DNA from: Chamaelirium japonicum
Taxonomy: Eukaryota > Streptophyta > Magnoliopsida > Liliales > Melanthiaceae
Direction: 5' to 3'
Length of the DNA stretch: 64,000 bases
Assembly: GCA_947650365.1 (NCBI GenBank)
Contig: CANTAL010000139.1
Coordinates: 682,001-746,000 of the forward strand
This document shows positions 444-64,000 of this stretch, piece by piece (positions within the stretch are counted from its first letter, which is position 1; each line of letters begins with the position of its first letter). The position numbers and the translations under genes are program-made. A model generated the notes under the pieces. That model saw nothing but the letters and a program-made list of their open reading frames with translations, did not search any database and had not been told where the DNA came from.

Positions 444-2923
444 TCATTCGCACGATCCATTCTAATTCATTCATACGATCCATTCTAATTCATTCATACA
501 ATGCATTCTAATTCTTTCGCACGATCCATTCTAATTCATTCATACGATCCATTCTAATTCATTTGTACGATCCATTCTAATTCACTCATACGATCCATTC
601 TAATACATTCATACGATCCATTCTAATTCATTTGCACGAATATATCCATTCTAATTCATTCGTATGATCCATTCTAATTCCTTCGTACGATCCATTCTAA
701 TTCATTCGTACGATCTATTCTAATTCATTCGTACGATCCATTCTAATTCATTCGTACGATCCATTCTAATTCCTTCATACGATCCATTCTAATTCCTTCG
801 TACGATCCATTCTAATTCATTCATACAATCCATTCTAATTCTTTCACACGATCCATTCTAATTCATTCGTACAATCCATTCTAATTCATTCGTGCAATCC
901 ATTCTATTTCATTCGTACGATCCATTCTTACTCATTCGTACGATCCATTCTAATTCATTCACACGAATGTATCCATTCGTACGAATGAATTAGAATAGAT
1001 TGTACGAATGAAATAGAATGGATCGTACGAATGAATTAGAATGGATCGTACGAAGGAATTAGAATGGATCGTACGAATGAATTAGAATGGATCGTACGAA
1101 TGAATTAGAATAGATTGTACGAATGAATTAGAATGGATCGTTCGAAGGAATTAGAATGGATCGTACAAATGAATTAGAATGGATATATTCGTGCAAATGA
1201 ATTAGAATGGATCGTATGAATGTATTAGAATGGATCGTATGAGTGAATTAGAATGGATCGTACGAATGAATTAGAATGGATCGTATGAATGAATTAGAAT
1301 GGATACATTCGTGCGAATGAATTAGAATTGATCGTACGAATGAATTAGAATGGATCGTGCGAATGAATTAGAATGGATCGTACGAATGAATTAGAATGGA
1401 TCGTACGAATGAACTAGAATGGATACATTCGTGCGAATGAATTAGAATGGATCGTACGAATGAATTAGAATGGATCGTACGAATGAATTAGAATGGATCT
1501 TACGAATGAATTAGAATGGATCGTACGATTGAATTAGAATGGATCGTACGAATGAATTAGAATGGATACATTCGTGCGAATGAATTAGAATGGATCGGAC
1601 GAAGGAATTAGAATGGATCGTACGAATGAATTAGAATGGATCAAATGAATGAATTAGAATGGTTACATTCACGCGAATGAATTAGAATGGATCGTACGAA
1701 TGGATTAGAATGGATCGTACGAATGGATTAGAATAGATACATTCGAGCGAATGAATTAGAATGGATCGTACGAATGAATTAGAATGGATCGGACGAATGG
1801 ATTAGAATAGATCCTACGAATGGATTATAATGGATACCTTTGTGCATATGAATTAAAAAGGATCGTACGAATGAATTAGAATGGATCATATTAATGAATT
1901 AGAATGGATCGTACGAATGAATTAGAATGGATACATTCGTGCGAATGAATTAGAATGGATCGTGCGAATCCATTAGACTGGATCGTGCGAATGAATAAGA
2001 ATGGATCATATGAATGAATTAGAATGGATCGTACAAATTAATTAGAATGGATATATTCGTGCGAATGAATTAGAATGGATTTTATGAATGAATTAGAATG
2101 GATCGTACGAATGAATTAGAATGGATCAAACGAATTAATTAGAATGGATCATACGAATAAATTAGAATGGATCGTACGAATGAATTAGAATGGATCGTAC
2201 GAATGAATTAAAATGGATACATTCGTGCGAATGAATTAGAATGGATCGGACGAATGAATTAGAATGGATCGTACGAATGAATTAGAATGGATCAAATGAA
2301 TGAATTAGAATGGTTACATTCATGCGAATGAATTAGAATGGATCGTACGAATGGATTAGAATGGATCGTACGAATGGATTACAATGGATACATTCGTGCG
2401 AATGAATTAGAATGGATTGTATGAATGAATTAGAATGGAACGTACGAATGAATTAGAATGGATCGTATGAGTGAATTAGAATGGATATGAAGGAATTAGA
2501 ATGGATCGTACGAAGGAATTAGAATGGATCATACGAATGAAATAGAATGGATCGTACGAAGGAATTAGATTGGATCGTACGAAGGAATTAGAATGGATCG
2601 TACGAATGAATTAGAATGGATATATTCGTGCAAATGAATTAGAATGGATCGTACGAATGAATTAGAATGGATCATATGAGTGAATTAGAACGGATAGTAC
2701 GAATGAAGTAGAATGGATCGTATGAATGAATTAGAATGGATACATTCGTGCGAATGAATTTAAATGGATTGTATGAATGAATTAGAATAGATTGTGCGAA
2801 TGAATTAAAATGGATCGTACAAATGAATTAGAATGGATACATTCGTGCGAATAAATTAGAATGGATTGTATGAATGAATTAGAATGGATCGTATGAATGA
2901 ATTAGAATGGATCGTGCGAATGA

Positions 2924-3976
2924 ATTCGAATGGATCGCATGATCCATTCGAATAGAATGGATCGTATCAATGAATTAGAATGGATCGGGCGAATGAATTA
3001 GACTGGATTGTAGGAATGAATTAGAATGGATGGTATGAATGAATTAGAATGGATCGTATGAATGAATTAGAATGGATCGTGCGAATGAATTAGAATGGAT
3101 CATACGAATGAATTAGAATAGATCGTACGAATGAATTAGAATGGATCATACGAATGAGTTAGAATGAATCGTACGAATGAAATAGAATGGATTGTACGAA
3201 TGAATTAGAATGGATACATTCATGCGAATGAATTAGAATGGATCGGACGATTGAATTAGAATGGATCGTACGATTCATTCTAATTCATTCATACAATCCA
3301 TTCTAATACATTCGTACGATTCATGCTAATTCATTCGCACGATCCATTCTAATTCATTCGTACGATCCATTCTTATTCATTCATACGATCCATTCTAATT
3401 CATTCGCACAATCCATTCTAATTCATTCCTACAATCCATTCTAATTCATTCATACGATCCATTCTAATTCATTCGCACAATCCATTCTAATTCATTCATA
3501 CAATCCATTCTAATTCATTCATACGATCCATTCTAATTCATTCCCACGATCCATTCTAATTTATTCGTACGATCCATTCTAATTCATTCGTACGATCTAT
3601 TCTAATTCATTCGCACGAATGTAACCATTCTAATTCATTCATACGATTCATTCTAATTCATTCGTATGAGCTATTCTAATTCATTCGTACGATCCATTCT
3701 AATTCATTCGTACGATCCATTGTAATTCATTCATACAATCCATTTAGATTCATTCGCACAAATGTATCCATTCAAATTCATTCGTACGATCCAGTCTAAT
3801 TCATTCGTACGATCCATTCTAATTCCTTCGTACGATCCATTCTAATTCATTCGTACGATCTATTCTAATTCATTTATACGATCCATTCTACTTCATTCGT
3901 ACGATCCATTCTAATTCATTCGTTTGATCCATTCTAATTCATTCGTACAATCTATTCTAATTCATTCGTACGAATG
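2924..3976. repeat. Higher-order satellite unit of about 1 kb, copy 1 of 3
   Basis: The unit starts with the 30-bp hairpin 2924-2953 (loop GCAT). It runs through R monomers with private variants (GGGCG near 2987, a distinct GGACGATTG near 3243), switches R to F near 3268 at GGATCGTACGATTC, carries the F variants AATACATTCG and GATTCATGC near 3305-3330, and ends at the F to R palindrome CATTCGTACGAATG (3963-3976). The same order of private variants recurs at 38755-39796 and 55381-56433. The unit therefore contains two orientation switches and was copied as a whole. Confidence 0.8.
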
Positions 3977-5771
3977 GATACATTCGTGTGAATGAATTAG
4001 AATGGATCGTACGAATGAGTAAGAATGGATCGTACGAATGAAATAGAATGGATTGCACGAATGAATTATAATGGATCATACGAATGAATTAGAATGGAAC
4101 GTGTGAAAGAATTAGAATGGATTGTATGAATGAATTAGAATGGATCGTACGAATGAATTAGAATGGATCGTACGAAGGAATTAGAATAGATCGTACGAAT
4201 GCATTAGAATGGATCGTACGAATGAATTAGAATGGATCGTACGAATGAATTAGAATGGATATATTCGTGCAAATGAATTAGAATGGATCGTATGAATGTA
4301 TTAGAATGGATCGTATGAGTGAATTAGAATGGATCGTACGAATGAATTAGAATGGATCGTATGAATGTATTAGAATGGATACATTCGTGTGAATGAATTA
4401 GAATGGATCGTATGAATGAATTAGAATAGATTTTGTGAATGAATTAGAACTGATCGTACGAATGAATTAGAATGGATACATTCGTGCGAATGAATTAGAA
4501 TGGATACATTCGTGCGAATGAATTAGAATGGATTGTATGAATGAATTAGAATGGATCGTACGAATGAACTAGAATGGATACATTCGTGCGAATGAATTAG
4601 AATGGATCGTACGAATGAATTAGAATGGATCGTAGGAATGAATTAGAATGGATCTTACGAATGAATTAGAATGGATCGTACGAATGAATTAGAATGGATC
4701 GTACAAATGAATTAGAATGGATACATTCGTGCGAATGAATTAGAATGGATCGGACGAATGAATTAGAATGGATCGTACGAATGAATTAGAATGGATCGTA
4801 CGAATGAATTAGAATGGATCGTACGAATAAATTAGAATGGATACATTCGTCCGAATGAATTAGAATGGATCATACGAATGAGTAAGAATGGATCGTACGA
4901 ATGAAATAGAATAGATTGTACGAATGAATTAGAATGGATCCTACGAATGAATTAGAATGGATCGTGTGAAAGAATTAGAATGGATTATATGAATGAATTA
5001 GAATGGATCATATGAATGAATTAGAATGGATCGTGCGAATGAATTCGAATGGATCGTACGAATTCATTCTAATTCATTCATACAATCCATTCTAATTCTT
5101 TCACACGATCCATTCTAATTCATTCGTACATTCTATTCTAATTCATTAGCACGATCCATGCTAATTCATTCGTTCGATCAATTCTAATTCATTAGCACGA
5201 TCCATTCTAATTCATTCGTACGATCCATTCTAATTCATTCGCACGATCCATTCTAATTCATTCATAGGATCCATTCTAATTCATTCATACAATCTATTCT
5301 AATTCATTCGCAAGAATGTATCCATTCTAATTCGTTCGTACGATCAGTTCTAATTCATTCACAAAATCTATTCTAATTCATTCATACGATCCATTCTAAT
5401 TAATTCACACGAATGTATCCATTCTAATTCATACATACGATCCATTCTAATTCATTCTTACGATCCATTCTAATTCACTCATACGTTGCATTCTAATACA
5501 TTCATACGATCCATTATAATTCATTTGCACGAATATATCCATTCTAATTCATTCGTACGATCCATTCTAATTCCTTCGTACGATCCATTCTAATTTATTC
5601 GTACGATCTATTCTATTTCATTCGTACGATCCATTCTTACTCATTCGTACGATCCATTCTAATTCATTTGTCCGATCCATTCTAATTCATTCGCATGAAT
5701 GTATCCATTCTAATTCATTCGTTCGATCAATTTTAATTCATTAGCACGATCCATTCTAATTCATTCTTACG

Positions 5772-5784
5772 ATCCATTCTAATT
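5772..5784. repeat. Target-site duplication, left copy (13 bp)
   Basis: ATCCATTCTAATT immediately left of the LINE poly(A), identical to 12141-12153 on the other side. Because the host DNA is a 23-bp repeat, the test is phase: in an uninterrupted array the base after this string starts CATTC, but the right flank restarts 13 bases earlier. That restart shows a real duplication. The last two T are shared with the T run of the tail, so the boundary is uncertain by about 2 bases. Confidence 0.85.
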
Positions 5785-5799
5785 TTTTTTTTTTTTTTT
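5785..5799 (-). other. LINE poly(A) tail
   Basis: An unbroken T run on the plus strand (5783-5799, 17 T, two of which probably belong to the target site) is the poly(A) of the minus-strand element. It marks the 3' end and the point where target-primed reverse transcription began on the plus strand after CTAATT. Confidence 0.93.
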
Positions 5800-6011
5800 A
5801 CTCAAAGTTTGGGGATTTTATTTGGGACCCCGCCCATGAAAGTAATCATATTACAAAGAATCCAAAGCCTTTTATAGAACAAGGCAACCAAAATACAGAA
5901 AGGAAAAACAAACAACAAAGAAATCTGCACCCTTCCTTTAGAACAATCTGAAAGACTGGCATCCCAATCCTCTAAACTGCATTCAGACCTTCAGAAAACC
6001 TATTTTTGCAA
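5800..6011 (-). other. LINE 3' UTR
   Basis: About 212 bases between the ORF2 stop (6012-6014) and the tail, with no open frame of note. It is unrelated to the satellite in sequence and composition. It holds the polyadenylation signal near its end. Confidence 0.8.
5817..5822 (-). promoter_or_regulatory. Polyadenylation signal AATAAA of the LINE
   Basis: Plus-strand TTTATT reads AATAAA on the element strand and lies 18-23 bases upstream of the tail, the usual spacing for a canonical signal. Confidence 0.7.
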
Positions 6012-7448
6012 TTAGTCAGAAACTCTGTCATAAATCCGACCTATTTTATCAGCTCCAATGGCAATATGAAGATTTTTCCTGAAGTTTTGAGGATAGCACT
6101 TGATAATTGTAGATGTATGGAATCCCATCTTAGACAATATATCTGCTGGCTGATTTCCTTCTCTCCAGATATGTGAGAGTTTTGAATGATCAAACTTGTG
6201 CATTTGCATTCTGATTTTTGAAATATGATGAACAGCTGACCATGGGATAGAGTAATTACCCTTGATGCAGTTAACAGCTAGGAGAGAATCAGACTCAATC
6301 CAAACTTTACTCAGTTTCATATTAGAGGCATAAGATAGTCCAACTTCAATAGCTTCCAGCTCAATGTTAAGAATATCAGAGAAATTAGACATACCATAGT
6401 AACCAAAGTCAGCATCACCTTCACTGTTTCTGAAAATGCCTCCAATTGAAGCATTTCCTTGGTTAAAAGCTCCATCAGTATTTAGTTTTACCCATCCTTC
6501 AGTCGGTTTTTCCCAAGAAACTTGATTGACATTATGACTGGTCATATTAAGTGAGCAACCCCATTTAGCAGCACATAGGGAGTTATCATAATTGTCAACA
6601 TCACCAAGATGTGATTCAACAATTCTGAGACAAATTGATTTAGTGATTTGAGCCATCAAATATCTCTTATGCCTAGTAATTTTCTCAAAGACTCTCTTAT
6701 TTCTTTCCTCCCAAAGGTAATAGATCACACAAGCTGTAGCAATACGAGCAATAGAAGCAATCATACCTTTGCCTTTGAATTTAGATTGAAGTCTAGCAAT
6801 TTCTTCATTTAAAGTACCAACTCTAGTAGCTTTAATATTAAATCTGGATAAAACTGATTTCCATATCCAATTTGAGTAGGAGCATTTGAAGAAAAGATGC
6901 TCATGATCCTCTCTATCAGACCAACAAAGAGAGCACAAAGAGTGAACAACTATTCCTCTCTTATGAAGTTTATCACAGGTTAGTAGCTTCTTCTGGACTG
7001 CTCTCCAAAGACAGAAAGCATGCTTTTCAATTCTCTGATTATGCCAAATCCATTTATATTCAGGAAAAGAATTACCTTTAACCCGAATTGCTTCCCATGC
7101 TGATTTGAGTGTATATTCACCATTTGTAGAAGGTTTCCAAACAATGAGGTCTTGAAAATCAGAGAAACTACTGTCAACTTGCTTTGCCATCTCAAAAATA
7201 TCACACAAATCTGCTGAATTAGGATGAGGAAAATCCCAATTATTATCATGCAAGAAATTGCTCACTAGGACATCTTTGCCAAAACCCATATCATAGACAG
7301 CTCTATCATTGAATAAATCAATGAATCTACCATTTGGATGCCATAAGTCATACCAGAACTTCGTGTTTTCACCATTGCCCACCACATGACAGATTAAAGG
7401 TTTCACAATATGCCTAATGTTGAGTATCCCCCTCCAAATACCTGATAC
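6012..7448 (-). CDS. LINE ORF2, C-terminal part: zf-RVT-like region and RNase H
   Basis: The C-terminal third of ORF2, in a different frame from the segment before it. Numbering from the GTG at 7406 (464 residues): a zf-RVT-like zinc region has CSLC at 158-161 followed by DHEH and FKC (175). RNase H covers about 305-430, with the expected acidic residues visible: NTDGA (D311), ELEAIE (E349), ESDS (D373) and REGNQPAD (D422). RNase H would remove RNA from the RNA/cDNA hybrid. The frame opens at 7448 after an in-frame TAA; codons 7448-7407 read like the normal linker (GIWRGIL), so GTG 7406 is not a true start. The break with the preceding frame therefore lies within 7403-7448. The stop is at 6012. 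The domain calls are secure; expression as a separate protein is not implied. Confidence 0.9.
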   Translation of the reverse strand, partial: VSGIWRGILNIRHIVKPLICHVVGNGENTKFWYDLWHPNGRFIDLFNDRAVYDMGFGKDVLVSNFLHDNNWDFPHPNSADLCDIFEMAKQVDSSFSDFQDLIVWKPSTNGEYTLKSAWEAIRVKGNSFPEYKWIWHNQRIEKHAFCLWRAVQKKLLTCDKLHKRGIVVHSLCSLCWSDREDHEHLFFKCSYSNWIWKSVLSRFNIKATRVGTLNEEIARLQSKFKGKGMIASIARIATACVIYYLWEERNKRVFEKITRHKRYLMAQITKSICLRIVESHLGDVDNYDNSLCAAKWGCSLNMTSHNVNQVSWEKPTEGWVKLNTDGAFNQGNASIGGIFRNSEGDADFGYYGMSNFSDILNIELEAIEVGLSYASNMKLSKVWIESDSLLAVNCIKGNYSIPWSAVHHISKIRMQMHKFDHSKLSHIWREGNQPADILSKMGFHTSTIIKCYPQNFRKNLHIAIGADKIGRIYDRVSD

Positions 7449-7723
7449 TTACCACAGATTTTGCAGTCCCAGATGTCATTGTGCTTTAAGTATTTTTGTC
7501 TAATCCAACGGGGCCACAAAGCATTATCATTAGAACAAATTCTCCAGATATGCTTGGATAGAGATGCAATATTCCATTCTACTAAATTCCGAAGACCAAG
7601 ACCACCCTCTTTCTTAGGATAACAAAGTTTCTTCCAAGCTATAGGGATCAGCTTCTTTGATAAAGAAGGCCCTCCCCACAAAAATCTGCAGAAGATACTC
7701 TCAATTGCATTTATAATTAATAG
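7403..7723 (-). CDS. LINE ORF2, short middle segment after the RT (FLWGG motif)
   Basis: A short open frame that continues the ORF2 reading after the first frame change. It contains FLWGG, then KKLCYPKKEGGLGLRNL and NIASLSKHIWRI, the conserved block that follows the RT thumb in plant LINE ORF2. The frame is open back to about 7723, upstream of the stop (7701-7703) that ends the EN-RT segment, so the frame change lies in roughly 7703-7725. The TTG at 7679-7681 is simply the Leu codon of FLWGG and not a start. The frame closes at 7403 and the downstream frame takes over. Confidence 0.82.
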   Translation of the reverse strand, partial: LLIINAIESIFCRFLWGGPSLSKKLIPIAWKKLCYPKKEGGLGLRNLVEWNIASLSKHIWRICSNDNALWPRWIRQKYLKHNDIWDCKICGKYQVFGGGYSTLGIL

Positions 7724-10166
7724 ACTTAGGAATCCTAAAGATACCCGACCAGTAGATGTGCAGAGAATTAAGAACTGATTTAATAAGTTCTACTCGGCCA
7801 GCTAGTGAAAGAAAATTCCGATTCCAGGAGCCTATTTTAGCTCTGATTTTATCTATCAGAATCTGACAGTCTGTATATTTAAGCCCCTTCGAAATGAGAG
7901 GAAGTCCAAGATACTTGACTGGTAGTTTTTCTTCTCTGAATCCTAGGACTTCAAGAATCTCTTGCTTATTCTGAACATTGCTACTGAAAAAGACCATAGA
8001 CTTCTCATGGTTTATCTCCAAACCTGATTGCTTGTTGAAGGAATAAAGAATACTTTTCCATTCAATAGCAGAAAGAACATTTGCATTACTGAAGAGAAGC
8101 AAGTCATCTGCATAGGCCAAATGAGAAACAGGGAAGCTACCAAGTCCTGGAACTGAGATCCTTTTGTTATTCTCTGTATCTGAAATGAGACAAGAGAGCA
8201 CATTCATTGCAATAGTAAAAATATAGGGGGAAAGTGGGTCTCCCTGTCTGATCCCTCTGTAAGCTTTGAAAAAACCTGCTGCTGCTCCATTTATAAGAAC
8301 AGAAAATTTGACTGATGTGATACAAGATTCAATCCAAGAGATCCATTTTCTGGGGAAAGCCATAGCCTGAAGACATTGAAGAATGAAAGAATGGCTGACA
8401 GTGTCAAATGCTTTTTTTAAATCCACTTTAATACACATTCTGGGGGTGCCAATCTGTGTATGATAGTTATTAAGTAATTCATGGGCCATCATAACTGCAT
8501 CTTGGATAAGTCTACCATTTAGGAAGGCTAATTGATACTCTGATATAAGAGGAGGAAGCACAATCTTCATTCGATTTGCAAGGATAGTAGAGATGATTTT
8601 GTAGGAAAAATTGCAAAGAGAAATAGGTCTGCAGCTAGCAAAGCTAGAAATACGATCCTCTTTAGGAATCAGAGCAATCAATGTGTGGTTAAGCATAGAT
8701 ATCTTATCCTGATGATCATAAAACCATCGAACCATAGCAATAATATCAGTTTTGATAGTCTCCCAGTTTTTAACATAAAAAGAATCTGAGAAACCATCAG
8801 CTCCAGGAGCTTTATTAGCAGAAGATTCATGAATAGCATTGTAGATTTCTTCATCAGAAAAAGGCAAACAAAGCCAATTTGATTGGGCCTCTGTCAATTG
8901 CTTGATATTAGCACAGCTCATATTTTCTGTAGGACTATGCTTAAACAAGTTGGAAAAAAAATTTATTCCTTCATCCTTGATAGTTTCTGGTTCTTCAAGA
9001 GTGTTTCCGGATGATGAAAGGATAGAGATAATCTTGGTTCTAGATCTTCTGTTATTAATAGCTGCATGATAAAATTTAGTGTTAGAATCACCCTCAGTCA
9101 ACCATTGAATTCTAGATTTAACTCTGAGTAAATCTGTATGAATAGCCCTCTCTTTCTTTAGCTGAATCAGAGCAGTTCTCTCTTCCAAGGCTAAAGTAAT
9201 ATCCAAAGGATTTAGGCTGATTTTTTCCTGAATCAGCTCTAAATTTTTCTCTGCTGCTTCACATCTGAACTGAGTGTGCCCAAAGCTACTTTTATTCCAG
9301 GATTTCAATCTGATTTTAAGCCTTTTCAGTTTTGTACAGATTTGCATAAAAGGGTCTCCCTCAACTGGCTGCTTCCAAGACTCTGCTACAATAGTGTGAT
9401 AATCTTTATGAGTTTCCCAGATTTGAAGATATCTGAAAGGAGGGGATCCAAAAGACCAAGAGGGCTTCATACTTATCACCATTGGAGAGTGGTCAGAATC
9501 ACCTTGTGTAAGAAATTTAGTAATACTATTTGGAAAACCAAAAAGCCAATGATGATTGACAAGAGTCCTATCCAGTTTAGCTGCAATTCTTGTGACCTCA
9601 GCTCTATTAGTCCAAGTAATATGAATCCCATGAGATTCCATGTCTTCAAGCTCACAGGTGTCAAGAGTGTCATTGAAATCTTTGAGAATAGAAGAAGGAA
9701 CAAGATTTCCACCTATTTTCTCATTTGCTGCCTTGATGACATTGAAATCACCTGCAACTAACCAAGGCCCTGTAACCATTTTAGCAATAGAAAGCATAGA
9801 AGACCACAATCCTCTTCTGTCAGTCACTGTGTTATGTCCATAAACAATAGAGAGAAGGAAACATTTGTTCCCTGGAATCCATCGAATCTTACAATGAATA
9901 ATTTGATCAGATTCCAAAAGTTTAAGCACTTCAAAATTACTTGGGTCCCAAAGCATAATAATTCTGCCAGCCCTATGGGAAGAGTGATTAGAGATTGAAT
10001 CCCAATGAGGGTTAATACATTGTTTGATTCGAGTAAAATTACCTTCTTTTACCTTGGTTTCAACCAATCCAAAAAGGCCAATGTTATGTTTAGCTGAGAG
10101 CTTTTTAACATCTTGGCATCTATCCATACTGTTGAGACCCCTTGTGTTCCAAACACAAATATTCAT
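7701..10166 (-). CDS. LINE ORF2, N-terminal part: AP endonuclease and reverse transcriptase
   Basis: 821 residues. An exonuclease-endonuclease-phosphatase fold covers about 1-230: NTRG (N7), VETK (E36), GDFN (D140, N142), KLDR (199-200) and SDH (D225, H226). This enzyme nicks the target DNA. Reverse transcriptase covers about 445-760: RPISLCN (513-519), VDLKKAFD (D582), GIRQGDPLSP (638-647), YADD (685-688; D687 and D688 catalytic) and KYLGLPL (751-757). It copies LINE RNA from the nicked end. The LTEGDSNTKFYH linker (356-367) is typical of plant L1. The start is ATG 10166, chosen because MNICVWNTRG is the usual ORF2 opening; it overlaps the ORF1 stop as ATGA. The segment ends at TGA 7701 just past the RT thumb, well short of the approximately 1,385 codons from start to the RNase H stop, because of a frame change. 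Confidence 0.95.
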   Translation of the reverse strand: MNICVWNTRGLNSMDRCQDVKKLSAKHNIGLFGLVETKVKEGNFTRIKQCINPHWDSISNHSSHRAGRIIMLWDPSNFEVLKLLESDQIIHCKIRWIPGNKCFLLSIVYGHNTVTDRRGLWSSMLSIAKMVTGPWLVAGDFNVIKAANEKIGGNLVPSSILKDFNDTLDTCELEDMESHGIHITWTNRAEVTRIAAKLDRTLVNHHWLFGFPNSITKFLTQGDSDHSPMVISMKPSWSFGSPPFRYLQIWETHKDYHTIVAESWKQPVEGDPFMQICTKLKRLKIRLKSWNKSSFGHTQFRCEAAEKNLELIQEKISLNPLDITLALEERTALIQLKKERAIHTDLLRVKSRIQWLTEGDSNTKFYHAAINNRRSRTKIISILSSSGNTLEEPETIKDEGINFFSNLFKHSPTENMSCANIKQLTEAQSNWLCLPFSDEEIYNAIHESSANKAPGADGFSDSFYVKNWETIKTDIIAMVRWFYDHQDKISMLNHTLIALIPKEDRISSFASCRPISLCNFSYKIISTILANRMKIVLPPLISEYQLAFLNGRLIQDAVMMAHELLNNYHTQIGTPRMCIKVDLKKAFDTVSHSFILQCLQAMAFPRKWISWIESCITSVKFSVLINGAAAGFFKAYRGIRQGDPLSPYIFTIAMNVLSCLISDTENNKRISVPGLGSFPVSHLAYADDLLLFSNANVLSAIEWKSILYSFNKQSGLEINHEKSMVFFSSNVQNKQEILEVLGFREEKLPVKYLGLPLISKGLKYTDCQILIDKIRAKIGSWNRNFLSLAGRVELIKSVLNSLHIYWSGIFRIPKSINYKCN

Positions 10167-11509
10167 TTAGATAAAAATGGGGCAGAATAAGTGCCCAGAT
10201 CAGATGAAGCACATGTAGTATCAATTCTGTCCTCTTCATCTTCAGATTCTAGCATAGTTCCCGAAACCAAATCCGGCTCAAAATTTGGAGGATGACCTTT
10301 ATTTTGAATTTCATTCAACACAGCAATTCTGGATGCTTTTCTATAAGCTTGTATGATAGTGGGGGGACCTGCTGTATGAACAGATTTTAAAGCTTGGAGG
10401 TACTCATAATTTGCCTTGAATCTAGCCAAACTTTCCTCCTTTTCAACATCCAGTACCTGTTCCTGAGCTTCATGTTGGTTCCCATTGTCAGTATCAGCAT
10501 CCAAGACTTTAGAATTACTCTCTTTGTATTCCCTAATTGATTCCTTTGCAGCAGTTTCATCCAGATTTGTAGAGTCATAAGATAATTCCTTGGCCTTATC
10601 AGTTATAGCAGCATTTTTCCCAGAATCAACAATTTTTGATTTGATGACAGACTCTATATTCATGTTCTTAGAAATACACTCTTTGTATTCCCTAATCGAT
10701 TCCTTTGCAGCAGTTTCATCCATATTTTTAAAGTCATGAGATAATTCCTTGGCCTTATCAGTTGTAACATCATTTTTCCCAGAATCAACTTTAGCATCCA
10801 AAACCTCATAAGGATTAGAAATTTCTAGTGATTGAGTTTTCTGCTGTACCTTTTGAGTCCAGACTCTCTGCCTCTGCATAATCTTTGATTTTGAGACATA
10901 AGAGGGACAAATATTCTGAGTATGTCCAAATCCTTGACAGTGAGAGCAAAAGGTAGGCTTCCATTCATAGATAACTTGCTGTTCAAAAGCAAACTGACCT
11001 TTTATGAAAATAGGTATTGAATCAACAAGCTTAGAACTTGAGGAGACCTCAATATAGATTCTGGCATAATTTGGACGTAGTTTCTTTTCAGTAGGCTCAT
11101 CAATTCGAATAAGATCACCAATAACACTGCCAATTTTGCAGAAGCTTTCCCACGCATAAAATTCTAGTGGTAAATGAGGCAGACGAATCCATATAGGTAA
11201 TTTATCAAACATCTTTCGTTCAAGGATAATACCTGGTTTCCACTTCCACAAAAACAGAGGACGACCTTCAAAATTCCATGTCCCTGATTGTAGTATGCGA
11301 TTGAAATCAGATTCATCAGAGAATTGGAAAATAATAAGCCCATTATCAATAGTAGATATTGTAAAAACCCCTTTACATTTCCAATCTCTCAACAATCTAG
11401 AACGTAAAGAACGGTAGTAAGGCCTTTTTCCCATCAGATGTCCAACTATGGTATTCTTCCAATGATTTATCCCTTCTTCAATATTTTCTGCAGAAAGATC
11501 CACTCCAAA
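10163..11509 (-). CDS. LINE ORF1, C-terminal part: DUF4283-like domain and CCHC zinc knuckle
   Basis: 448 codons in the same frame as the upstream ORF1 piece, separated from it only by TGA 11510-11512. It has a DUF4283-like region of about 145 residues (GINHWKN, GTWNFEG, FLWKWKP, PIWIRLPHLPLEFY, NYARIYIEV) and a zinc knuckle, C-x2-C-x4-H-x4-C (CSHCQGFGHTQNIC), at residues 186-199 counted from the GTG at 11503. ORF1 proteins of this kind bind element RNA in the ribonucleoprotein. After the knuckle comes a charged tail with an internal duplication. GTG 11503 is not a credible start; the segment is the continuation of ORF1. It ends at TGA 10163-10165, overlapping the ORF2 ATG. Confidence 0.9.
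   Translation of the reverse strand, partial: FGVDLSAENIEEGINHWKNTIVGHLMGKRPYYRSLRSRLLRDWKCKGVFTISTIDNGLIIFQFSDESDFNRILQSGTWNFEGRPLFLWKWKPGIILERKMFDKLPIWIRLPHLPLEFYAWESFCKIGSVIGDLIRIDEPTEKKLRPNYARIYIEVSSSSKLVDSIPIFIKGQFAFEQQVIYEWKPTFCSHCQGFGHTQNICPSYVSKSKIMQRQRVWTQKVQQKTQSLEISNPYEVLDAKVDSGKNDVTTDKAKELSHDFKNMDETAAKESIREYKECISKNMNIESVIKSKIVDSGKNAAITDKAKELSYDSTNLDETAAKESIREYKESNSKVLDADTDNGNQHEAQEQVLDVEKEESLARFKANYEYLQALKSVHTAGPPTIIQAYRKASRIAVLNEIQNKGHPPNFEPDLVSGTMLESEDEEDRIDTTCASSDLGTYSAPFLSK
10520..10789 (-). repeat. Internal duplication in LINE ORF1 (two copies of about 110 bp)
   Basis: Segments 10520-10630 and 10679-10789 are close copies offset by 159 bp, exactly 53 codons, so frame is kept. 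Both encode VDSGKN, TDKAKELS, DETAAKESIREYKE. It lies in the acidic/basic linker after the zinc knuckle, a region of plant LINE ORF1 that tolerates length change. Differences between the copies are mostly single bases. Confidence 0.9.
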
Positions 11510-12136: not shown

Positions 12137-12140
12137 TTCT

Positions 12141-53984: not shown

Positions 53985-54610
53985 GTTCATATGATCCATT
54001 CTAATTCGTTCATACGATCCATTCTAATTCGTTCGTACGATCCATTCTAATTCATTCGTACGATCCATTCTAATTCATTCGTATGATCCATTCTAATTCA
54101 TTCCTACGATCTATTCTAATTCATTCGCTCGAATATATCTATTCTAATTCATTCGTTCGATCCATTCTAATTCATTCGCACGATCCATTCTAATTCATTC
54201 ATATGATCCATTCTAATCCAGTCGTACGATCCATTCTAATTCATTCGTACGATCCATTCTAATTCATTCGTACGATCCATTCTAATTCATTCGTACGAAT
54301 GGATTAGAATGGATCCATTCTAATTCGTTCATATGATCCATTCTAATTCGTTCATACGATCCATTCTAATTTGTTCGTACGATCCATTCTAATTCATTCG
54401 TATGATCCATTCTAATTCATTCCTACGATCTATTCTAATTCATTCGCTCGAATATATCCATTCTAATTCATTCGTTCGATCCATTCTAATTCATTCGCAC
54501 GATCCATTCTAATTCATTCATATGATCCATTCTAATCCATTCGTACGATCCATTCTAATTCATTCGTACGATCCATTCTAATTCATTCGTACGATCCATT
54601 CTAATTCATT
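53985..54610 (+). repeat. Local tandem duplication of about 330 bp
   Basis: The order ATTCGTTCATATG, ATTCGTTCATACG, GTATGATCC, CCTACGATC, CGCTCGAATATATC, CGTTCGATCC, CATATGATCC is seen starting near 53991 and again near 54323. The second copy lacks one 23-bp monomer. A 17-bp R fragment with a 22-bp palindrome (54303-54324) sits exactly at the boundary between the two copies. Confidence 0.82.
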
Positions 54611-55380
54611 CGAACGAATGTATCCATTCTAGTTCATTCGTACGATCCATTCTAATTCATTCGTACGATCCATTCTAATTCATTCGCACAATCCATTCTA
54701 ATTCCTTCGTACGATCCATTCTAATTCATTCGTACGATCCATTCTAATTCATTCGTACGATCCATTCTAATTCCTTCGTACGATCCATTCTAATTCCTTC
54801 GTACGATCCATTCTAATTCATTCGTACAAATGGATACATTCGTGTGAATGAATTAGAATGGATCGTACGAATGAATTAGAATGGATACCTTTGTGCAAAT
54901 GAATTAGAATAGATCGTATGAATGAATTAGAATGAATCGTATGAGTGAATTAGAACGGATAGTACGAATGGATCGTACGAATGAATTAGAATGGATCGTG
55001 TGAAAGAATTAGAATGGATTGTATGAATGAATTAGAATGGATCGTACAAATGAATTAGAATGGATCGTACGAAGGAATTTGAATGGATCGTACGAATGAA
55101 TTAGAATGGATCGTACGAATGAATTAGAATAGATCGTACGAATGAATTAGAATGGATCGTACGAAGGAATTAGAATGGATCGTACGAATGAATTAGAATT
55201 GATATATTCGTGCAAATGAATTAGAATGGATCGTATGAATGTATTAGAATGGATCGTATGAGTGAATTAGAATGGATCGTACGAATGAATTAGAATGGAT
55301 CGTATGAATGAATTAGAATGGATCGTGCGAAAGAATTAGAATGCATTGTATGAATGAATTAGAATGGATCGTGCGAATGA

Positions 55381-56433
55381 ATTCGAATGGATCGCATGAT
55401 CCATTCGAATAGAATAGATCGTATGAATGAATTAGAATGGATCGGGCGAATGAATTAGAATGGATCGTATGAATGAATTAGAATGGATCGTATGAATGAA
55501 TTAGAATGGATCGTGCGAATGAATTAGAATGGATCGTACGAATGAATTAGAATGGACCGTACGAATGAATTAGAATGGATCATACGAATGAATTAGAATG
55601 GATCATACGAATGAGTAAGAATGGATCGTACGAATGAAATAGAATGGATTATACGAATGAATTAGAATGGATACATTCATGCGAAAGAATTAGAATGGAT
55701 CGTACGATTCATTCTAATTCATTCGTACGATCCATTCTAATACATTCGTACGATTCATACTAATTCATTCGCACGATCCATTCTAATTCATTCGTACGAT
55801 CCATTCTTATTCATTCATACGATCCATTCTAATTCATTCGCACGATCCATTCTAATTCATTCGTACGATCCATTCTAATTCATTCGTACGATCCATTCTA
55901 ATTCATTCGTTAGATCCATTCTAATTAATTCGTATGATCCATTCTAATTCATTCGTACGATCCATTCTAATTTATTCGTACGATCCATTCCAATTCATTC
56001 GTACGATCTATTCTAATTCATTCGCACGAATGTAACCATTCTAATTCATTCATACGATTCATTCTAATTCATTCGTATAAGCTATTATAATTCATTCGTA
56101 CGATCCATTCTAATTCATTCGTACGATCCATTGTAATTCATTCATACAATCCATTTAGATTCATTCGCACAAATGTATCCATTCAAATTCATTCGTACGA
56201 TCCAGTCTAATTCATTCGTACGATCCATTCTAATTCCTTCATACGATCCATTCTAATTCATTCGTACGATCCATTCTAATTCATTCGTACGATCTATTCT
56301 AATTCATTCGTACGATCCATTCTAATTCATTCGTACAATCCATTCTAATTCCTTCGTACGATCCATTCTAATTCATTCGTACGATCCATTCTAATTCATT
56401 CGTACAATCTATTCTAATTCATTCGTACGAATG
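55381..56433. repeat. Higher-order satellite unit of about 1 kb, copy 3 of 3
   Basis: Starts with the 30-bp hairpin 55381-55410 (loop GCAT) and ends at the palindrome CATTCGTACGAATG (56420-56433), as in the copy at 2924-3976. Internal markers GGGCG, the R to F switch near 55706, AATACATTCG, GATTCATAC, GATCCAGTC and TTAGATTC are in the same order. Its length is equal to copy 1 within a few bases (1,053 bp by these limits). Confidence 0.82.
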
Positions 56434-59400
56434 GATACATTTGTGTGAATGAATTAGAATGGATCGTACGAATAAGTAAGAATGGATCGTACGAATTAAA
56501 TAGAATGGATTGCACGAATGAATTAGAATGGATCGTACGAATGAATTAGAATGAATCGTGTGAAAGAATTAGAATGGATTGTATGAATGAATTAGAATGG
56601 ATCGTACGAATGAATTAGAATAGATCGTACGAATGAATTAGAATGGATCGTACGAATGAATTAGAATGGTTCGTACGAATGAATTAGAATGAATCGTGTG
56701 AACGAATTAGAATGGATCGTATGAATGAATTAGAATGGATCGTACGAATGAATTAGAATAGATCGTACGAATGAATTAGAATGGATCGTACGAAGGAATT
56801 AGAATGGATCGTACGAATGAATTAGAATGGATTGTGCGAATGAATTAGAATGGATCGTACGAATGAATTATAATGGATCGTGTGAAAGAATTAGAATGGA
56901 TTGTATGAATGAATTAGAATAGATCCTATGAATGAATTAGAATGGATCGTACGAATGAATTAGAATGGATCGTACGAATGAATTAGAATGGATCTTACGA
57001 ATGAATTAGAATGGATCGTACAAATGCACGATCCATGCTAATTCATTCGTTCGATCAATTCTAATTCATTAGCACGATCCATTCTAATTCATTCATACGA
57101 TCCATTCTAATTCATTCGCACGATCCATTCTAATTCATTCGTACGATCCATTCTAATTCTTTCACACGATCCATTCTAATTCATTCGTACGATCCATTCT
57201 AATTCATTCGTACGATCTATTCTAATTCATTCGTACGATCCATTCTAATTCATTCGTACGATCCATTCTAATTCCTTCGTACGATCCATTCTAATTCATT
57301 CATACAATCTATTCTAATTCATTCATACAATCCATTCTAATTCTTTCACACGATCCATTCTAATTCATTCGTACGATCCATTCTAATTCATTCACACAAT
57401 CCATTCTAATTCATTCGCACGAATGTATCCATTCTAAATCATTCGTACAATCCATTCTATTTCATTAGTTCGATCCATTCTTACTCATTGTACGAATGAA
57501 TTAGAATGGATCCTACGAATGAATTAGAATGGATCGTGTGAAAGAATTAGAATGGATTGTTTGAATGAATTAGAATGGATCGTATGAATGAATTAGAATG
57601 GTTCGTACGAATGAATTAGAATGGATACGTTCGTGCGAATGAATTAGAAATTGATCGTACGAATGAATTAGAATGGATCGTGCGAATGAATTAGAATGGA
57701 TCGTACGAATGAATTAGAATGGATCGTACGAATGAACTAGAATGGATACATTCGTGCGAATGAATTAGAATGGATCGTACGAATGAATTAGAATGGATCG
57801 TACGAATGAATTAGAATGGATCTTAGGAATGAATTAGAATGGATCGTACGAATGAATTAGAATGGATCGTACGAATGAATTAGAATGGATACATTCGTAC
57901 GAATGAATTAGAATGGTTCGTACGAAGGAATTAGAATGGATCGTACGAATGAATTTGAATGGATACATTTGTGCGAATTAATCTAAATGGATTGTATCAA
58001 TGAATTATAATGGATCGTAAGAATGAATTAGAATGGATCGTACGAATGAATTAGAATGGATCGTACGAATGAATTAGAATAGCTCATACGAATGAATTAG
58101 AATGAATCGTATGAATGAATTAGAATGGATACATTCGTGCGAATGAATTAGAATGGATCGTACGAATGAATTAGAATGAATATATTCGTGCAAATGAATT
58201 AGAATGGATCGTATGAATGTATTAGAATGGATCGTATGAGTGAATTAGAATGGATCATGCGAATGAATTAGAATGGATTGTATGAATGAATTAGAATGGA
58301 TCGTGCGAATGAATTAGAATGGATCGTACGAATGAACTAGAATGGATCCTATGAATGAATTAGAATGGATCGTGCGAATGAATTAGAATGGATCGTACGA
58401 ATGAATTAGAATGGATCATGCTAATGAATTAGAATTGATCGAACGAATGAATTAGAATGGATACATTCGTGCGAATGAATTAAAATGGTTCGGACGAATG
58501 AATTAGAATGGATCGTACGAATGAGTAAGAATGGATCGTACGAATGAAATAGAATAGATCGTACGAATGATTTAGAATGGATCGTACGAAGGAATTAGAA
58601 TGGATCGTACGAATGAATTAGAATGGATCGTACGAATGATTTAGAATGGATCGTACGAATGGCTTAGAATGGATCCTACGAATGGATTAGAATGGATACC
58701 TTTGTGCATATGAATTAGAATGGATCGTATGAATGAATTAGAATGGATCGTAGAATGGATCGTACGAATAAATTTGAATGAATTAGAATGGATCGTACGA
58801 ATGAATTAGAATAGATCATAGGAATGAATTAGAATGGATCGTGCAAATGAATTAGAATGGATACATTCGTGCGAATGAATTAGAATGGATCGGATGAATG
58901 AATTAGAATGGATCGTACGAATGAGTAAGAATGGATCGTACGAATGAATGGATCGTACAAATGAAATATAATGGATTGTACGAATGAATTAGAATAGATC
59001 ATACAAATGAATTAGAATGGATCGTACGAATTAATTAGAATGGATCATACGAATTAATTAGAATGGATCGTGTAAAAGAATTAGAATGGATTATATGAAT
59101 AAATTAGAATAGATCGTATGAATGAATTAGAATGGATCGGACGAATGAATTAGAATGGATACATTTGTGCGATTGAATTAGAATGGATCGTACGAATGAA
59201 TTAGAATGGATCGTACGAATGAATTAGAATGGATCTTACGAATGAATTAGAATGGATCGTACGAATGCACGATCCATGCTAATTCATTCGTTCGATCAAT
59301 TCTAATTCATTAGCACAATCCATTCTAATTCATTCGTACGATCCATTCTAATTCATTCGCACGATCCATTCTAATTCATTCGTACGATCCTTTCTAATTC

Positions 59401-59639
59401 TTTCACACGATCTATTCTAATTCATTCGTCCGATCCATTCTAATTCATTCGCACGAATGTATCCATTCTAATTCATTCGTACGATCTATTCTAATTCATT
59501 CGTACGATCCATTCTAATTCATTCATACAATCTATTCTAATTCATTCATACAATCCATTCTAATTCTTTCACACGATCCATTCTAATTCATTCGTACGAT
59601 CCATTCTAATTCATTCATACAATCCATTCTAATTCTTTC

Positions 59640-60935
59640 ACACGATTCATTCTAATTCATTCGTACGTTCCATTCTAATTCATTAGCATGATCCATGCTA
59701 ATTCATTCGTTCGATCAATTCTTATTCATTAGCACGATCCATTCTAATTCATTCGCACGATCCATTCTAATTCATTCATAGGATCCATTCTAATTCATTC
59801 ATACGATCTATTCTAATTCTTTCGCACGAATGTATCCATTCTAATTTATTCGCACGAATGTATCCATTCTAATTCATTCGTACGATCCATTCTAATTCAT
59901 TCGTACGATCCATTCTAATTCATTCATACGATCTATTCTAATTCATTCATACAATCCATTCTAATTCTTTCACACGATCCATTCTAATTCATTCGTACGA
60001 TCCATTCTAATTCATTCGCACAATCCATTCAATTTTATTCGTACGATCCATTCTTACTCATTGGTACGATCCATTCTAATTCATTCGCATGAATGTATCC
60101 ATTCTAATTCATTCGTACGAATCCATTGTAATTCATTCGTACAATCCATTCTATTTCATTCGTACGATCCATTCTTAGTCATTCGTATGATCCATTCTAA
60201 TTCATTCGCACGATTGTATCCATTCTAAATCATTCGTATGATCCATTCTAATTCATTCGTACGATCCATTCTAAATCATTCGTACAATCCATTCTATTTC
60301 ATTCGTACGATCAATTCTAATTCATTAGCACGATCCATTCTAATTCATTCATACGATCCATTCAAATTCATTCGCACGATCCATTCTAATTCATTCGTAC
60401 AATCCATTCTATTTCATTCGTACGATCCATTCTTACTCATTTGTATGATCCATTCTAATTCATTCGCACGAATGTATCCATTCTAATCCATTCGTACGAT
60501 CCATTCTAATCCATTCGTACGATCCATTCTAATTCATTCACATGAATGTAACCATTCTAATTCATTCATTTGATCCATTCTAATTCATTCGTACGATCTA
60601 TTCTAATTCATTCGTCCGATCCATTCTAATTCATTCGCACGAATGTATCCATTCTAAACCATTCATACGATCCATTCAAATTTATTCGTACGATCCATTC
60701 TAATTCATTCGTAAGATCCATTCTAATTCATTCGTACGATCCATTCTAATTCATTCGTACGATCCATTCTAATTCATTCGCACGAATGTATCCATTCTAG
60801 TTCATTCGTACGATCCATTCTAATTCATTCGTACGATCCATTATAATTCATTCGCACGATCCATTCTAATTCATTCGTACGATCCATTCTAATTCATTCG
60901 CACGAATGTATCCATTCTAATTCATTCGTACATAC
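59640..60935 (+). repeat. Higher-order satellite unit of about 1.3 kb, copy 3 of 3
   Basis: Shares the F part of the units at 42480 and 52130 (GATCCATGC, GTTCGATCAATTC, ATAGGATCC, GAATGTAACC, CATTTGATCC, CTAAACCATTC at 60655). It is reached from an F block and so lacks the R to F junction at its start. The stretch near 59745-59890 is the closest seen to the LINE right flank, sharing CTAATTTATTCGCACGAATG. Confidence 0.75.
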
Positions 60936-63900
60936 GATCCATTCTAATTCATTCGTACGATCCATTCTAATTCGTTCGCATGATATGTTCTTATTCATTC
61001 GCACAATTCATTCTAATTCATTCGCGTGATTGTATCCATTCTAATTCATTCGTACGATCCATTCTAATTCATATGCACAAAGGTATCCATTCTAATTCAT
61101 TCGTACGATCCATTCTAATTCAGGATCGTACGAATGAATTAGAATGAATACATTCGTGCGAATGAATTAGAATTGATCATACGAATGAGTAAGAATGGAT
61201 CGGACGAATGAATTAGAATGGATCGTACGAATGAATTAGAATGGATCAAATGAGTGAATGAATTAGAATAGATCGTGCGAATGAATTAGAATGGATCGGA
61301 CGAATGGATCGTACGAATGAATTAGAACGGATCGCACGAATGAATTAGAATGGATCTTACGAATGAATTAGAATGGATCGTACGAATGAAATAGAATGGA
61401 TTGTACGAATGATTTAGAATGGATAGTACGAATGAATTAGAATTGATCGTACGAATGAAATAGAATGGATTGTACGAATGATTTAGAATGGATCGTACGA
61501 ATGAATTAGAATGGATCGTACGAATGATTTAGAGTGGATACATTCGTGCGAATGAATTAGAATGGATCATACGAATGACTAAGAATGGATCGTACGAATG
61601 AAATAGAATGGATTGTACGAATGAATTAGAATGGATTTGTACGAATGAATTAGAATGGATACATTCATGCGAATGTATTAGAATGGATTGTACCAATGAG
61701 TAAGAATGGATCGTACGAATGAAATAGAATGGATTGTGCGAATGAATTAGAATGGATCGTACGAATGAATTAGAATGGATCATGTGAAAGAATTAGAATG
61801 GATTGTATGAATGAATTAGAATAGATCGTATGAATGAATTAGAATGGATCGTACGAATGAATGAGAATGGATCGTACGAATGAATTAGAATGGATATATT
61901 CGTCCGAATGAATTAGAATGGATCATACGGATGAGTAAGAATGGATCGTACGAATGAAATAGAATAGATTGTACGAATGAATTTGAATGGATCCTACGAA
62001 TGAATTAGAATGGATCGTGTGAAAGAATTAGAATGGATTGTATGAATGAATTAGAATGGATCATATGAATGAATTAGAATGGATCGTACGAATGAATTAG
62101 AATGGATACATTCATGCGAATGAATTAGAATTTATCGTACGAATGAATTAGAATGGATCGTGCGAATGAATTAGAATAGATCGTACGAATGAATTAGAAT
62201 GGATCATACGAATGAACTAGAATGGATACATTCGTGCGAATGAATTAGAATGGATCGTACGAATGAATTAGAATGGATCGTACGAATGAATTAGAATGGA
62301 TCTTACGAATGAATTAGAATGGATCGTACGAATGAATTAGAATGGATCGTATGAATGAATTAGAATGGATACATTCGTACGAATGAATTAGAATGGATCG
62401 TACGAATGAATTAGAATGGATCGTACGGAATGAATTAGAATGGATATATTTTAACAAATAAATTAGAATGGATCATACGAATGAATTAGAATGGATCGTA
62501 CGAATGAATTAGAATGGATCATACGAATGAATTAGAATGGATCGTACGAATGAATTAGAATGGATCGTACGAATAAATTAGAATGGATACATTCGTCCGA
62601 ATGAATTAGAATGGATCATACGAATGAGTAAGAATGGATCGTACGAATGAAATAGAATAGATTGTACGAATGAATTAGAATGGATCCTACGAATGAATTA
62701 GAATGGATCGTGTGAAAGAATTAGAATGGATTGTATGAATGAATTAGAATAGATCGTATGAATGAATTAGAATGGATCGTACGAATGGATTAGAATGGAT
62801 CGTACGAATGAATTAGAATGGATCGTATGAATAAACTAGAATGGATACATTCGTGCGAATGAATTAGAATGGATCGTGTGAAAGAATTAGAATGGATTGT
62901 GCGAATGAATTAGAATGGACCGTACGAATGAATTAGAACGGATACATTCGTGCGAATGAATTAGAATGGATCGGACGAATGAATTAGAATGGATCGTACG
63001 AATGAATTAGAATGGATCGTACGAATGAATTAGAATGGATCGTATGAATAAATTAGAATGGATACATTCGTCCGAATGAATTAGAATGGATCATACGAAT
63101 GAGTTAGAATGGATCGTACGAATGAAATAGAATAGATTGTACGAATGGATTAGAATGGATCCTATGAATGAATTAGAATAGATCGTGTGAAAGAATTAGA
63201 ATGGATTGTATGAATGAATTAGAATGAATTCGTACGATCCATTCGAATTCATTCGCACAATCCATTCTAATTCATTCATACGATCCATTCTAATTCATTC
63301 ATACAATCCATTCTAATTCTTTCACACGATCCATTCTAATTCATTCGTAGGATCCATTCTAATTCATTCGTACAATCTATTCTATTTCATTCGTACGATC
63401 CATTCTTACTCATTCGTATGATCCATTCTAATTCATTTGGACGAATGTATCCATTCTAATTTATTCGTACGATCCATTCTAATTCATTCGTACGATCCAT
63501 TCTAATTCATTCGTCCGATCCATTCTAATTTATTCGCCTGAATGTATCCATTCTAATTCATTCGTACGATCCATTCTAATTCATTCGCACAATCTATTCT
63601 AATTCATTCATACGATCCATTCTAATTCATTTGCACGAATGTATCCATTCTAATTCATTCATACGATCCATTCTACTTCATTCGTACTATCCATTCTAAT
63701 TCACTCATACGATCCATTCTAATTCATTCATACGATCCATTCTAATTCATTCGCACGATCCATTCTAATTCATTCGTACGATCCTTTCTAATTCTTTCAC
63801 ACGATCTATTCTAATTCATTCGTCCGATCCATTCTAATTCATTCGCACGAATGTATCCATTCTAATTCATTCGTACGATCCATTCTAATTCATTCGTACG

Positions 63901-64000
63901 ATCCATTCTAATTCATTCATACAATCTATTCTAATTCATTCATACAATCCATTCTAATTCTTTCACACGATCCATTCTAATTCATTCGTACGATCCATTC

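What the first reader, a model, noticed from the sequence alone, without database searches (positions are those of the whole stretch)
980..63232. Orientation switches are copied, not made anew: 11 junction types explain about 41 of 55
By eye the switches fall into recurring types with the same flanking variants. GAATTCGTACGATCC: 21757, 29806, 33832, 44879, 48052, 63232. GGATCGTACGAATTC: 5057, 20152, 40436, 42537, 52191. CATTCGTACGAATGGATAC: 3969, 23156, 26441, 33472, 51106, 54827, 56426. The 175-bp cassette gives two more types, four copies each. Others, two or three copies each: 3268/39068/55706, 980/49225, 24598/27595/47039, 28795/47207, 35064/38388/39796, 57026/59267. So few founding inversions were spread by duplicating segments that contained them, and junctions can serve as tags for the amplification history.
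Basis: partly seen in the sequence, partly recalled or inferred. Interest (0 to 1): 0.72.

Follow-up and report, generated by a model that had tools for sequence, protein, structure and literature searches.

The report
Copied orientation switches in centromere satellite
In this plant centromere-type repeat array the points where the repeat flips direction are mostly old copies, spread with the surrounding DNA and in both directions, and they are copied no more faithfully than other parts of the array.

Summary
Confirmed, with corrections. The window is a 23/28-bp satellite array with 53 orientation switches (reader: 55). Its 11 "types" are 7, because four are reverse complements of others. Over 249 kb of the same contig, 230 of 246 switches fall into 30 types, the larger ones present in both orientations. 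Types are not local: T0, T1, T2 and T5 have about 3,800 to 23,000 sites each in the genome, and 37 of 50 switches sampled from three places on another scaffold match a type found here (chance 4 of 200). Switches are passengers: random switch-free positions have the same share of close copies (52/60 versus 216/246 at score 0.9), and copies are about as often inverted as direct. Under strict scoring most ends of copied blocks lie inside a run with register intact, pointing to homology-directed copying; laxer scoring finds more ends at switches. Fold-back origin finds no support. One switch tested is unique in the assembly, so new ones do form. The genome is very probably Chionographis japonica (Chio holocentromere satellite), whose mixed orientation is published; recurrent inversion sites are published for Tribolium. 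Interest is moderate.

The parts
1..5784 (.). satellite array, 23-bp unit with 28-bp variant, runs of both orientations
5785..12137 (-). LINE insertion splitting an F run (same orientation on both sides, so not a switch)
   Evidence: RVT_1, RVT_3, zf-RVT and DUF4283 domains on the minus strand; T run at its low end
12138..64000 (.). satellite array, which goes on to the contig end
5042..5081 (+). switch type T0
20138..20177 (+). switch type T0
21736..21775 (-). switch type T0
29781..29820 (-). switch type T0
33810..33849 (-). switch type T0
40419..40458 (+). switch type T0
42522..42561 (+). switch type T0
44852..44891 (-). switch type T0
48028..48067 (-). switch type T0
63207..63246 (-). switch type T0
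52174..52213 (.). switch with a T0-like core, left flank weaker (T40, single in 249 kb)
959..998 (-). switch type T1
3957..3996 (+). switch type T1
23142..23181 (+). switch type T1
26429..26468 (+). switch type T1
33460..33499 (+). switch type T1
49204..49243 (-). switch type T1
51094..51133 (+). switch type T1
56414..56453 (+). switch type T1
54813..54852 (.). switch with a T1-like core, right flank different beyond 50 bp (T28, two copies in 249 kb)
13641..13810 (+). 170-bp cassette bounded by T2 and T3
16043..16212 (+). 170-bp cassette bounded by T2 and T3
24917..25086 (+). 170-bp cassette bounded by T2 and T3
27913..28081 (+). 169-bp cassette bounded by T2 and T3
47038..47207 (-). the same cassette inverted (T3 reversed, T2 reversed)
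28775..28814 (-). switch type T2 without the cassette
24579..24618 (-). switch type T3 reversed
27575..27614 (-). switch type T3 reversed
49..88 (+). switch type T4 (centred on the 8-bp dyad)
3246..3285 (-). switch type T4
39046..39085 (-). switch type T4
55680..55719 (.). switch sharing its right flank with T4, left flank different (T41, single in 249 kb)
57006..57045 (-). switch type T5
59247..59286 (-). switch type T5
35047..35086 (-). switch type T6
38366..38405 (-). switch type T6
19083..19122 (+). switch type T9
57470..57509 (-). switch type T9
39779..39818 (-). switch type T18 (reader: 35064 type); two more copies outside the window
33002..33041 (-). switch type T16; two more copies outside the window
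40857..40896 (-). switch type T17; two more copies outside the window
44252..44291 (-). switch type T12; three more copies outside the window
45867..45906 (-). switch type T15; two more copies outside the window
61103..61142 (-). switch type T8; four more copies outside the window
21218..21257 (.). switch T36, single in 249 kb; its 48-bp word has one site in the assembly at up to 3 mismatches
35582..35621 (.). switch T38, single in 249 kb; 133 further sites at 1-3 mismatches elsewhere
31968..32007 (.). switch T37, single in 249 kb
50899..50938 (.). switch T39, single in 249 kb by its flanks, centred on the dyad

Best explanation
The array is a Chio-type holocentromere satellite. Orientation switches are rare old joins that ride as passengers on homology-directed copying of array segments (hundreds of bases to about 10 kb in unbroken blocks, more in the large inverted repeat). 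Because F and R runs are the same sequence on opposite strands, a broken or stalled end in one run can pair with any run in either chromosomal direction; copying then crosses switches and reproduces them, direct or inverted, without making a new switch at the ends. Exchange between an F run and an R run of one chromatid would likewise flip a segment and its switches without making new ones. Shown here: shared flanks, copies in both orientations in near-equal number, equal copying of switches and switch-free positions, mostly in-register ends under strict scoring, genome-wide sharing. Inferred: the recombination pathway (gene conversion or break-induced copying, unequal exchange plus intrachromatid inversion, or circles that reinsert by homology). 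The founding joins were partly made at short shared sequence, including the 8-bp dyad TCGTACGA that both strands carry.
For: Types and both orientations: T0 21/26, T1 18/15, T2 13/17, T3 8/7 in 249 kb. Passengers: a 0.9 partner exists for 216/246 switches and 52/60 random positions; at 0.93 the shares are 0.768 and 0.767. Chance levels for that test are low: 0/200 for random joins, 2/40 (0.9) and 1/40 (0.93) for in-run chimeras. Window alone 35/53 versus 115/200 at 0.9 (Fisher p 0.28). Orientation: same/opposite partners at 0.9 are 191/179 (random) and 76/62 (switches) in the window with +-150 bp, and 878/768 for switches in 249 kb after pairs of the large inverted repeat are removed (pairs counted from both sides). 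Ends: 156 of 210 direct and 145 of 200 inverted ends have no switch in either copy under strict scoring, with register breaks close to chance. Genome: T0 23,028, T1 15,105, T2 11,355, T5 3,786 sites beside 559 and 9,378 for two in-run variant words. Sites per match in the 249 kb: 470, 420, 378 and 270 for these switches, 280 and 494 for the in-run words. Other scaffold: 37 of 50 switches match (chance 4/200). Founding: at least 4 bp of overlap in 15 of 46 types (13 of 40 without types bounded by very short runs) against 3.9% of random joins; 6 of 40 types centred on the dyad, p 0.007.
Against: End placement depends on scoring: laxer scoring finds a switch in one copy at 129 of 197 direct and 116 of 169 inverted ends within 25 bp or 104/181 and 91/156 within 40 bp (middle setting); strict scoring still leaves 49/210 and 51/200 against about 14% by chance. 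T0, T2 and T3 show no microhomology. Left and right flank histories of T0 are uncorrelated. With +-200 bp the window's switches lean to the same orientation (46/30 at 0.9, 90/68 at 0.85). In one other place 28 of the 29 listed exact T5 sites between 10.35 and 10.76 Mb of C1 have one orientation, so inverted copying is not equally active everywhere. Window switches have a non-significant surplus of close copies (27/53 versus 76/200 at 0.93, p 0.12). Not all genome-to-contig ratios agree: 1,333 for a dyad-centred switch word and 1,143 for the consensus dimer.
Confidence: 0.72

Rival explanations
1. Each switch arises anew by fold-back at the palindromic TCGTACGA (hairpin or template switch), so similar junctions are recurrent events at a hot spot.
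For: The dyad is in the unit; 6 of 40 types are centred on it; a dyad-centred R-to-F switch word has 31,984 sites in the genome, and all 24 of its matches in 249 kb are at called switches; overlaps of 4 bp or more are enriched among types.
Against: The two sides of a switch are not more mirror-alike than sides of unrelated switches: the most extreme of 46 types has 4.2% of the null above it. Larger types share private variants over 100 bp on both sides. Dyad-centred switches are only 29 of 246 here, and a regularly spaced series of them is listed on C2 near 121.2 Mb.
Confidence: 0.1
2. Switches are retained by selection (hairpin or kinetochore role of inversion sites), which is why they look conserved, as suggested for Tribolium inversion sites.
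For: High within-type similarity and thousands of copies; Tribolium madens precedent (PMC13081366, section 7 part 1).
Against: Switch-free positions have the same copy profile and one of two in-run variant words is as widespread as the switches.
Confidence: 0.08
3. Plain direct unequal crossing-over of higher-order units that already contained switches, with later large inversions giving both orientations.
For: Conserved neighbours and spacings, such as the T2-T3 cassette of 169-170 bp in 13 of 13 cases and T1-T4 at 581-713 bp; one large inverted repeat with arms near 100 kb; a one-orientation T5 series elsewhere.
Against: Orientations are balanced within one arm (142/150 for switches) and within the window (191/179 for random positions), which needs many inversion events rather than a few; repeated neighbours in one arm plus spacer are only modestly above shuffles (62 of 130 against a mean of 47 and a maximum of 63).
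Confidence: 0.2
4. Assembly artefact: repeats collapsed or misjoined, or two haplotypes joined head to head, produce the shared switches.
For: The contig holds a near-mirror repeat with arms near 100 kb and about 1% substitutions, a level that a haplotype misjoin could give; the contig is not chromosome-scale (831 kb).
Against: Members of one type within the window differ by clearly more than 1% (mean pair scores 0.84-0.93), and the same types occur on the 137-Mb scaffold C1 and genome-wide. An exact fold-back would be identical, and the arms are not.
Confidence: 0.05

Closest known systems
Chio1/Chio2 satellite of Chionographis japonica holocentromere units (PMC10264360; abstract, sections 8 and 14 read)
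   Same: 23- and 28-bp units that differ by 5 bp, 8-bp dyad, mixed forward and reverse arrays, spaced array blocks; HiFi assembly of 1,526,137,861 bp in 3,786 contigs against 1,518,659,071 bp in 3,253 contigs here
   Different: The sections read describe mixed orientation and a higher-order cluster but no switch types, junction counts or inverted-copy analysis; the printed consensus is in a figure that I did not see
TmSat1/TmSat2 macro-dyad symmetries of Tribolium madens (PMC13081366; passages and section 7 part 1 read)
   Same: Satellite arrays that change orientation at recurrent, highly similar inversion sites present in thousands of copies
   Different: Satellites built of about 110-bp subunits, two predominant inversion types for TmSat1, mostly two subarrays per array; function suggested. 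Here dozens of types, and switches are no better conserved than other positions
Chama satellite macro-monocentromeres of Chamaelirium luteum (PMC12722358; passages seen)
   Same: Centromere satellite of the sister lineage, megabase arrays with higher-order repeats
   Different: Consistently oriented arrays, in contrast to Chio

Membership tests
Chio1/Chio2 holocentromere satellite (C. japonica) | 23-bp unit and a 28-bp variant with 5 extra bases | tested here: met
   28-bp unit = 23-bp unit plus AATGT; paper section 8
Chio1/Chio2 holocentromere satellite (C. japonica) | 8-bp dyad able to pair between neighbouring units | tested here: met
   TCGTACGA in the unit; that it is the paper's 8-mer is inferred
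Chio1/Chio2 holocentromere satellite (C. japonica) | abundant in the genome, both orientations, in blocks along chromosomes | tested here: met
   3,697,494 dimer sites at up to 2 mismatches; the listed first sites on C1 fall in blocks near 1.36, 3.0, 10.3, 17.1, 18.0, 27, 30 and 40 Mb (capped list)
Chio1/Chio2 holocentromere satellite (C. japonica) | letter-for-letter match to the published consensus; genome name | not testable with these tools
Chio1/Chio2 holocentromere satellite (C. japonica) | CENH3 occupancy | not testable with these tools
   no chromatin data
recurrent inversion sites (Tribolium type) | recurrent, highly similar inversion sites across arrays | tested here: met
recurrent inversion sites (Tribolium type) | inversion sites better conserved than the rest of the array | tested here: not met
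   the paper's claim is similarity within site classes, this stricter comparison is mine
fold-back inverted duplication | two sides of the junction mirror each other | tested here: not met
   definition recalled

The most novel reading that the evidence does not exclude
Orientation is invisible to the homogenising machinery of this centromere: because both strands carry the same short dyad-bearing unit, segments of many sizes are copied between arrays and chromosomes in either direction, so a small genome-wide library of inversion junctions circulates and each array is a random signed mosaic of it. Conserved inversion sites in satellites would then be a by-product, not a functional element.
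Probability: 0.45. Interest if true: 0.62.

Novelty: new member of a known kind. Interest (0 to 1): 0.45.

Why it matters
Highly similar inversion sites in satellite arrays have been read as a hint of function. Here the matching control, switch-free positions of the same array, shows the same copy profile, so conservation of such sites alone is not evidence of function. The switches are also sharp, countable markers with two distinguishable orientations, which makes the question of how megabase centromere arrays are homogenised (direct unequal exchange versus orientation-blind, homology-directed copying between arrays) directly testable in a holocentric plant.

Tried and rejected
Fold-back origin: tested by mirror likeness of the two sides, at background. 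Strand balance of genome counts looked too exact for T0, T2 and T5, but T1 differs (7,416 versus 7,689), so dropped. An apparent one-orientation array on C1 (all 56 T0 sites listed up to 3,000,329 and all 67 T1 sites listed up to 2,705,824 are on +) was rejected: in the same stretch exact palindromic sites are listed on + only, so the place list is cut by strand there; I use the total counts, and the T5 series at 10.35-10.76 Mb with that caution. The F-to-R dyad count (23,938) is not relied on, because 0 of its 2 matches in 249 kb lie at a called switch. One-sided sharing between types (19 pairs at 0.9 or more) was not used for a founder genealogy because no null was run for 100-bp halves. Block ends were scored in three ways; all are reported, the strict one preferred because unrelated in-phase runs already score like about 83% identity (null mean 0.665). 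Six types bounded by runs under 60 bp may be small inserts rather than switches; they were left out of the dyad count (40 of 46 types) but kept elsewhere. At 0.82-0.88 random positions have more partners than switches, which is chance likeness (in-run chimeras reach 0.85 in 31 of 40), so the comparison rests on 0.9 and 0.93. Literature: sequence-string and topic searches found no account of switch types in Chio; that is a statement about this open-access library and these searches only.


Full report
What it is. The window is part of a tandem array of a 23-bp unit (ATCCATTCTAATTCATTCGTACG) and a 28-bp variant with five extra bases, broken by one LINE. It lies at 682,001-746,000 of an 831-kb contig of a 1.52-Gb genome; the last 249 kb of the contig, all I could obtain, is this array apart from the LINE. 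The dimer occurs 3.70 million times in the genome at up to two mismatches. Unit lengths, the five-base difference, an 8-bp dyad, mixed orientation and assembly size fit the Chio1/Chio2 holocentromere satellite of Chionographis japonica (PMC10264360: abstract, sections 8 and 14 read; NCBI name Chamaelirium japonicum). The letters of the published consensus were not seen, so the species is an inference.

Observation. A two-orientation HMM finds 53 switches in the window after one call at the LINE edge is dropped, and 246 of 248 in 249 kb after two are dropped. With the rest of the 249 kb, 47 of 53 window switches and 230 of 246 in all belong to 30 types; 16 are single. Many of the two-member types are partners in the large inverted repeat described below. 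Phase-matched random joins reach 0.85 in 22 of 12,300 comparisons; taking the best of all 246 switches, 4 of 200 do, and none of 200 reach 0.88.

Passengers. If switches were special, they should have more or closer copies than other positions. Over +-200 bp they do not: a partner at 0.9 exists for 216 of 246 switches and 52 of 60 random switch-free positions, and at 0.93 for 76.8% and 76.7%. Chance gives 0 of 200 for joins and 2 of 40 (0.9) or 1 of 40 (0.93) for in-run chimeras. With inverted-repeat partners removed the shares at 0.9 are 174/246 and 43/60. Within the window alone they are 35/53 and 115/200 at 0.9 (p 0.28) and 27/53 and 76/200 at 0.93 (p 0.12). Below 0.9 random positions have more partners, which is chance likeness of near-consensus units.

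Orientation. Copies lie in both directions about equally: at 0.9, same/opposite is 191/179 for random positions and 76/62 for switches in the window at +-150 bp; at +-200 bp the window's switches give 46/30. The 249 kb contain a large inverted repeat, window coordinates about -99,978..385 against 128,542..38,758, with 0.9-1.65% substitutions by block and interrupted in places. With its partner pairs removed the balance in 249 kb is 878/768 for switches and 194/161 for random positions, and within the left arm alone 142/150 for switches (pairs are counted from both sides).

How copies end. For chains of copied sequence of 700 bp or more, strict scoring places 156 of 210 direct and 145 of 200 inverted ends inside a run with no switch within 40 bp in either copy. 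There the 23/28-bp register is broken about as often as at random positions; at the middle setting one-copy breaks are 1.4 to 2 times chance, still far from the near-universal break that random end-joining would give. Ends with a switch in one copy are 49/210 and 51/200 under strict scoring, above the roughly 14% expected, and in the majority under laxer scoring. Direct and inverted copies behave alike at each setting. This fits homology-directed copying or exchange as the main route, with a minority of ends undecided.

Descent and its limits. The nearest copy by the left 400 bp is also nearest by the right 400 bp in 66 of 161 cases in the seven largest types against 7.4 by chance, and in 34 of 161 against 8.4 with inverted-repeat partners barred; with 150-bp flanks 25 and 16 of 161. 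Over the first 100 bp left and right distances correlate for T3 (r 0.60), T6 (0.74), T1 (0.33) and T5 (0.27), and not for T0 or T2; over 20-200 bp T3 and T6 still do, T2 barely (0.08), T1 no longer. Switches are thus copied as units but seem to be shuffled later, so a simple tree of amplification is not to be had from them.

Genome-wide. T0, T1, T2 and T5 have 23,028, 15,105, 11,355 and 3,786 sites (both strands, up to two mismatches); of the 129 matches of these four words in 249 kb, 126 are at called switches. Two in-run variant words, the first two of a seeded draw of six, have 559 and 9,378 sites. In 45 kb sampled from three places on C1 (near 1.36, 3.0 and 10.3 Mb, brought in by consensus dimers), 37 of 50 testable switches of 52 match a type of this contig at 0.85 and 32 at 0.9 (chance 4 and 0 of 200). 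The switch at 21,238 occurs once in the assembly at up to three mismatches in 48 bp; that at 35,602 has 133 further sites at one to three mismatches, three of them at one. These are the only two of the window's six singles tested genome-wide with a specific word; the dyad-centred word that covers the single at 50,919 is common.

Origin of the founders. No fold-back signature is seen. Shared sequence at the join is in excess: 15 of 46 types have 4 bp or more against 3.9% of random joins, and 6 of 40 types are centred on the TCGTACGA dyad (p 0.007), but T0, T2 and T3 have none. So microhomology, partly at the dyad, is one source and not the only one.

Known and new. Mixed orientation of Chio arrays is published (PMC10264360). 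Recurrent inversion sites in satellites are published for Tribolium madens, with 2,044 and 3,486 copies of two types at 98-99% similarity and a suggested role (PMC13081366: passages and section 7 part 1); its authors also name spread and exchange as an alternative. Chama arrays of the sister genus are consistently oriented (PMC12722358: passages). New here, as far as the searches show, are the switch types in a plant, their genome-wide sharing, the orientation balance and the control showing that switches are copied like other positions.

Noticed in passing
window 5785-12137: LINE on the minus strand with DUF4283, RVT_1, zf-RVT and RVT_3 domains in separate open frames, T run at its low end, inside an F run; the direct copy (-67,922..-53,983) and the inverted copy (94,054..81,342) of the surrounding array run past the site without it, as expected if it came after those duplications.
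   Followed up: partly
contig C151 582,001-831,200 (window -99,999 to 149,200): Inverted repeat with arms of about 90-100 kb and a spacer of about 38 kb, arms differing by about 1%; whether it is real or a haplotype misjoin is open.
   Followed up: partly
window 13717-13750, 16119-16152, 24993-25026: Exact 17-bp duplication inside three of the 170-bp cassette copies, a handy marker.
   Followed up: no
G000:C1 10.35-10.76 Mb: 28 of 29 listed exact T5 sites have one orientation, with some stretches at about 6-7 kb spacing (capped list), suggesting a recent direct higher-order expansion there.
   Followed up: no
beyond the window, positions 77330-78650 in window coordinates (contig 759,330-760,650): Runs of only 13-24 bp in the opposite orientation, possibly small inserts rather than inversions.
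   Followed up: partly
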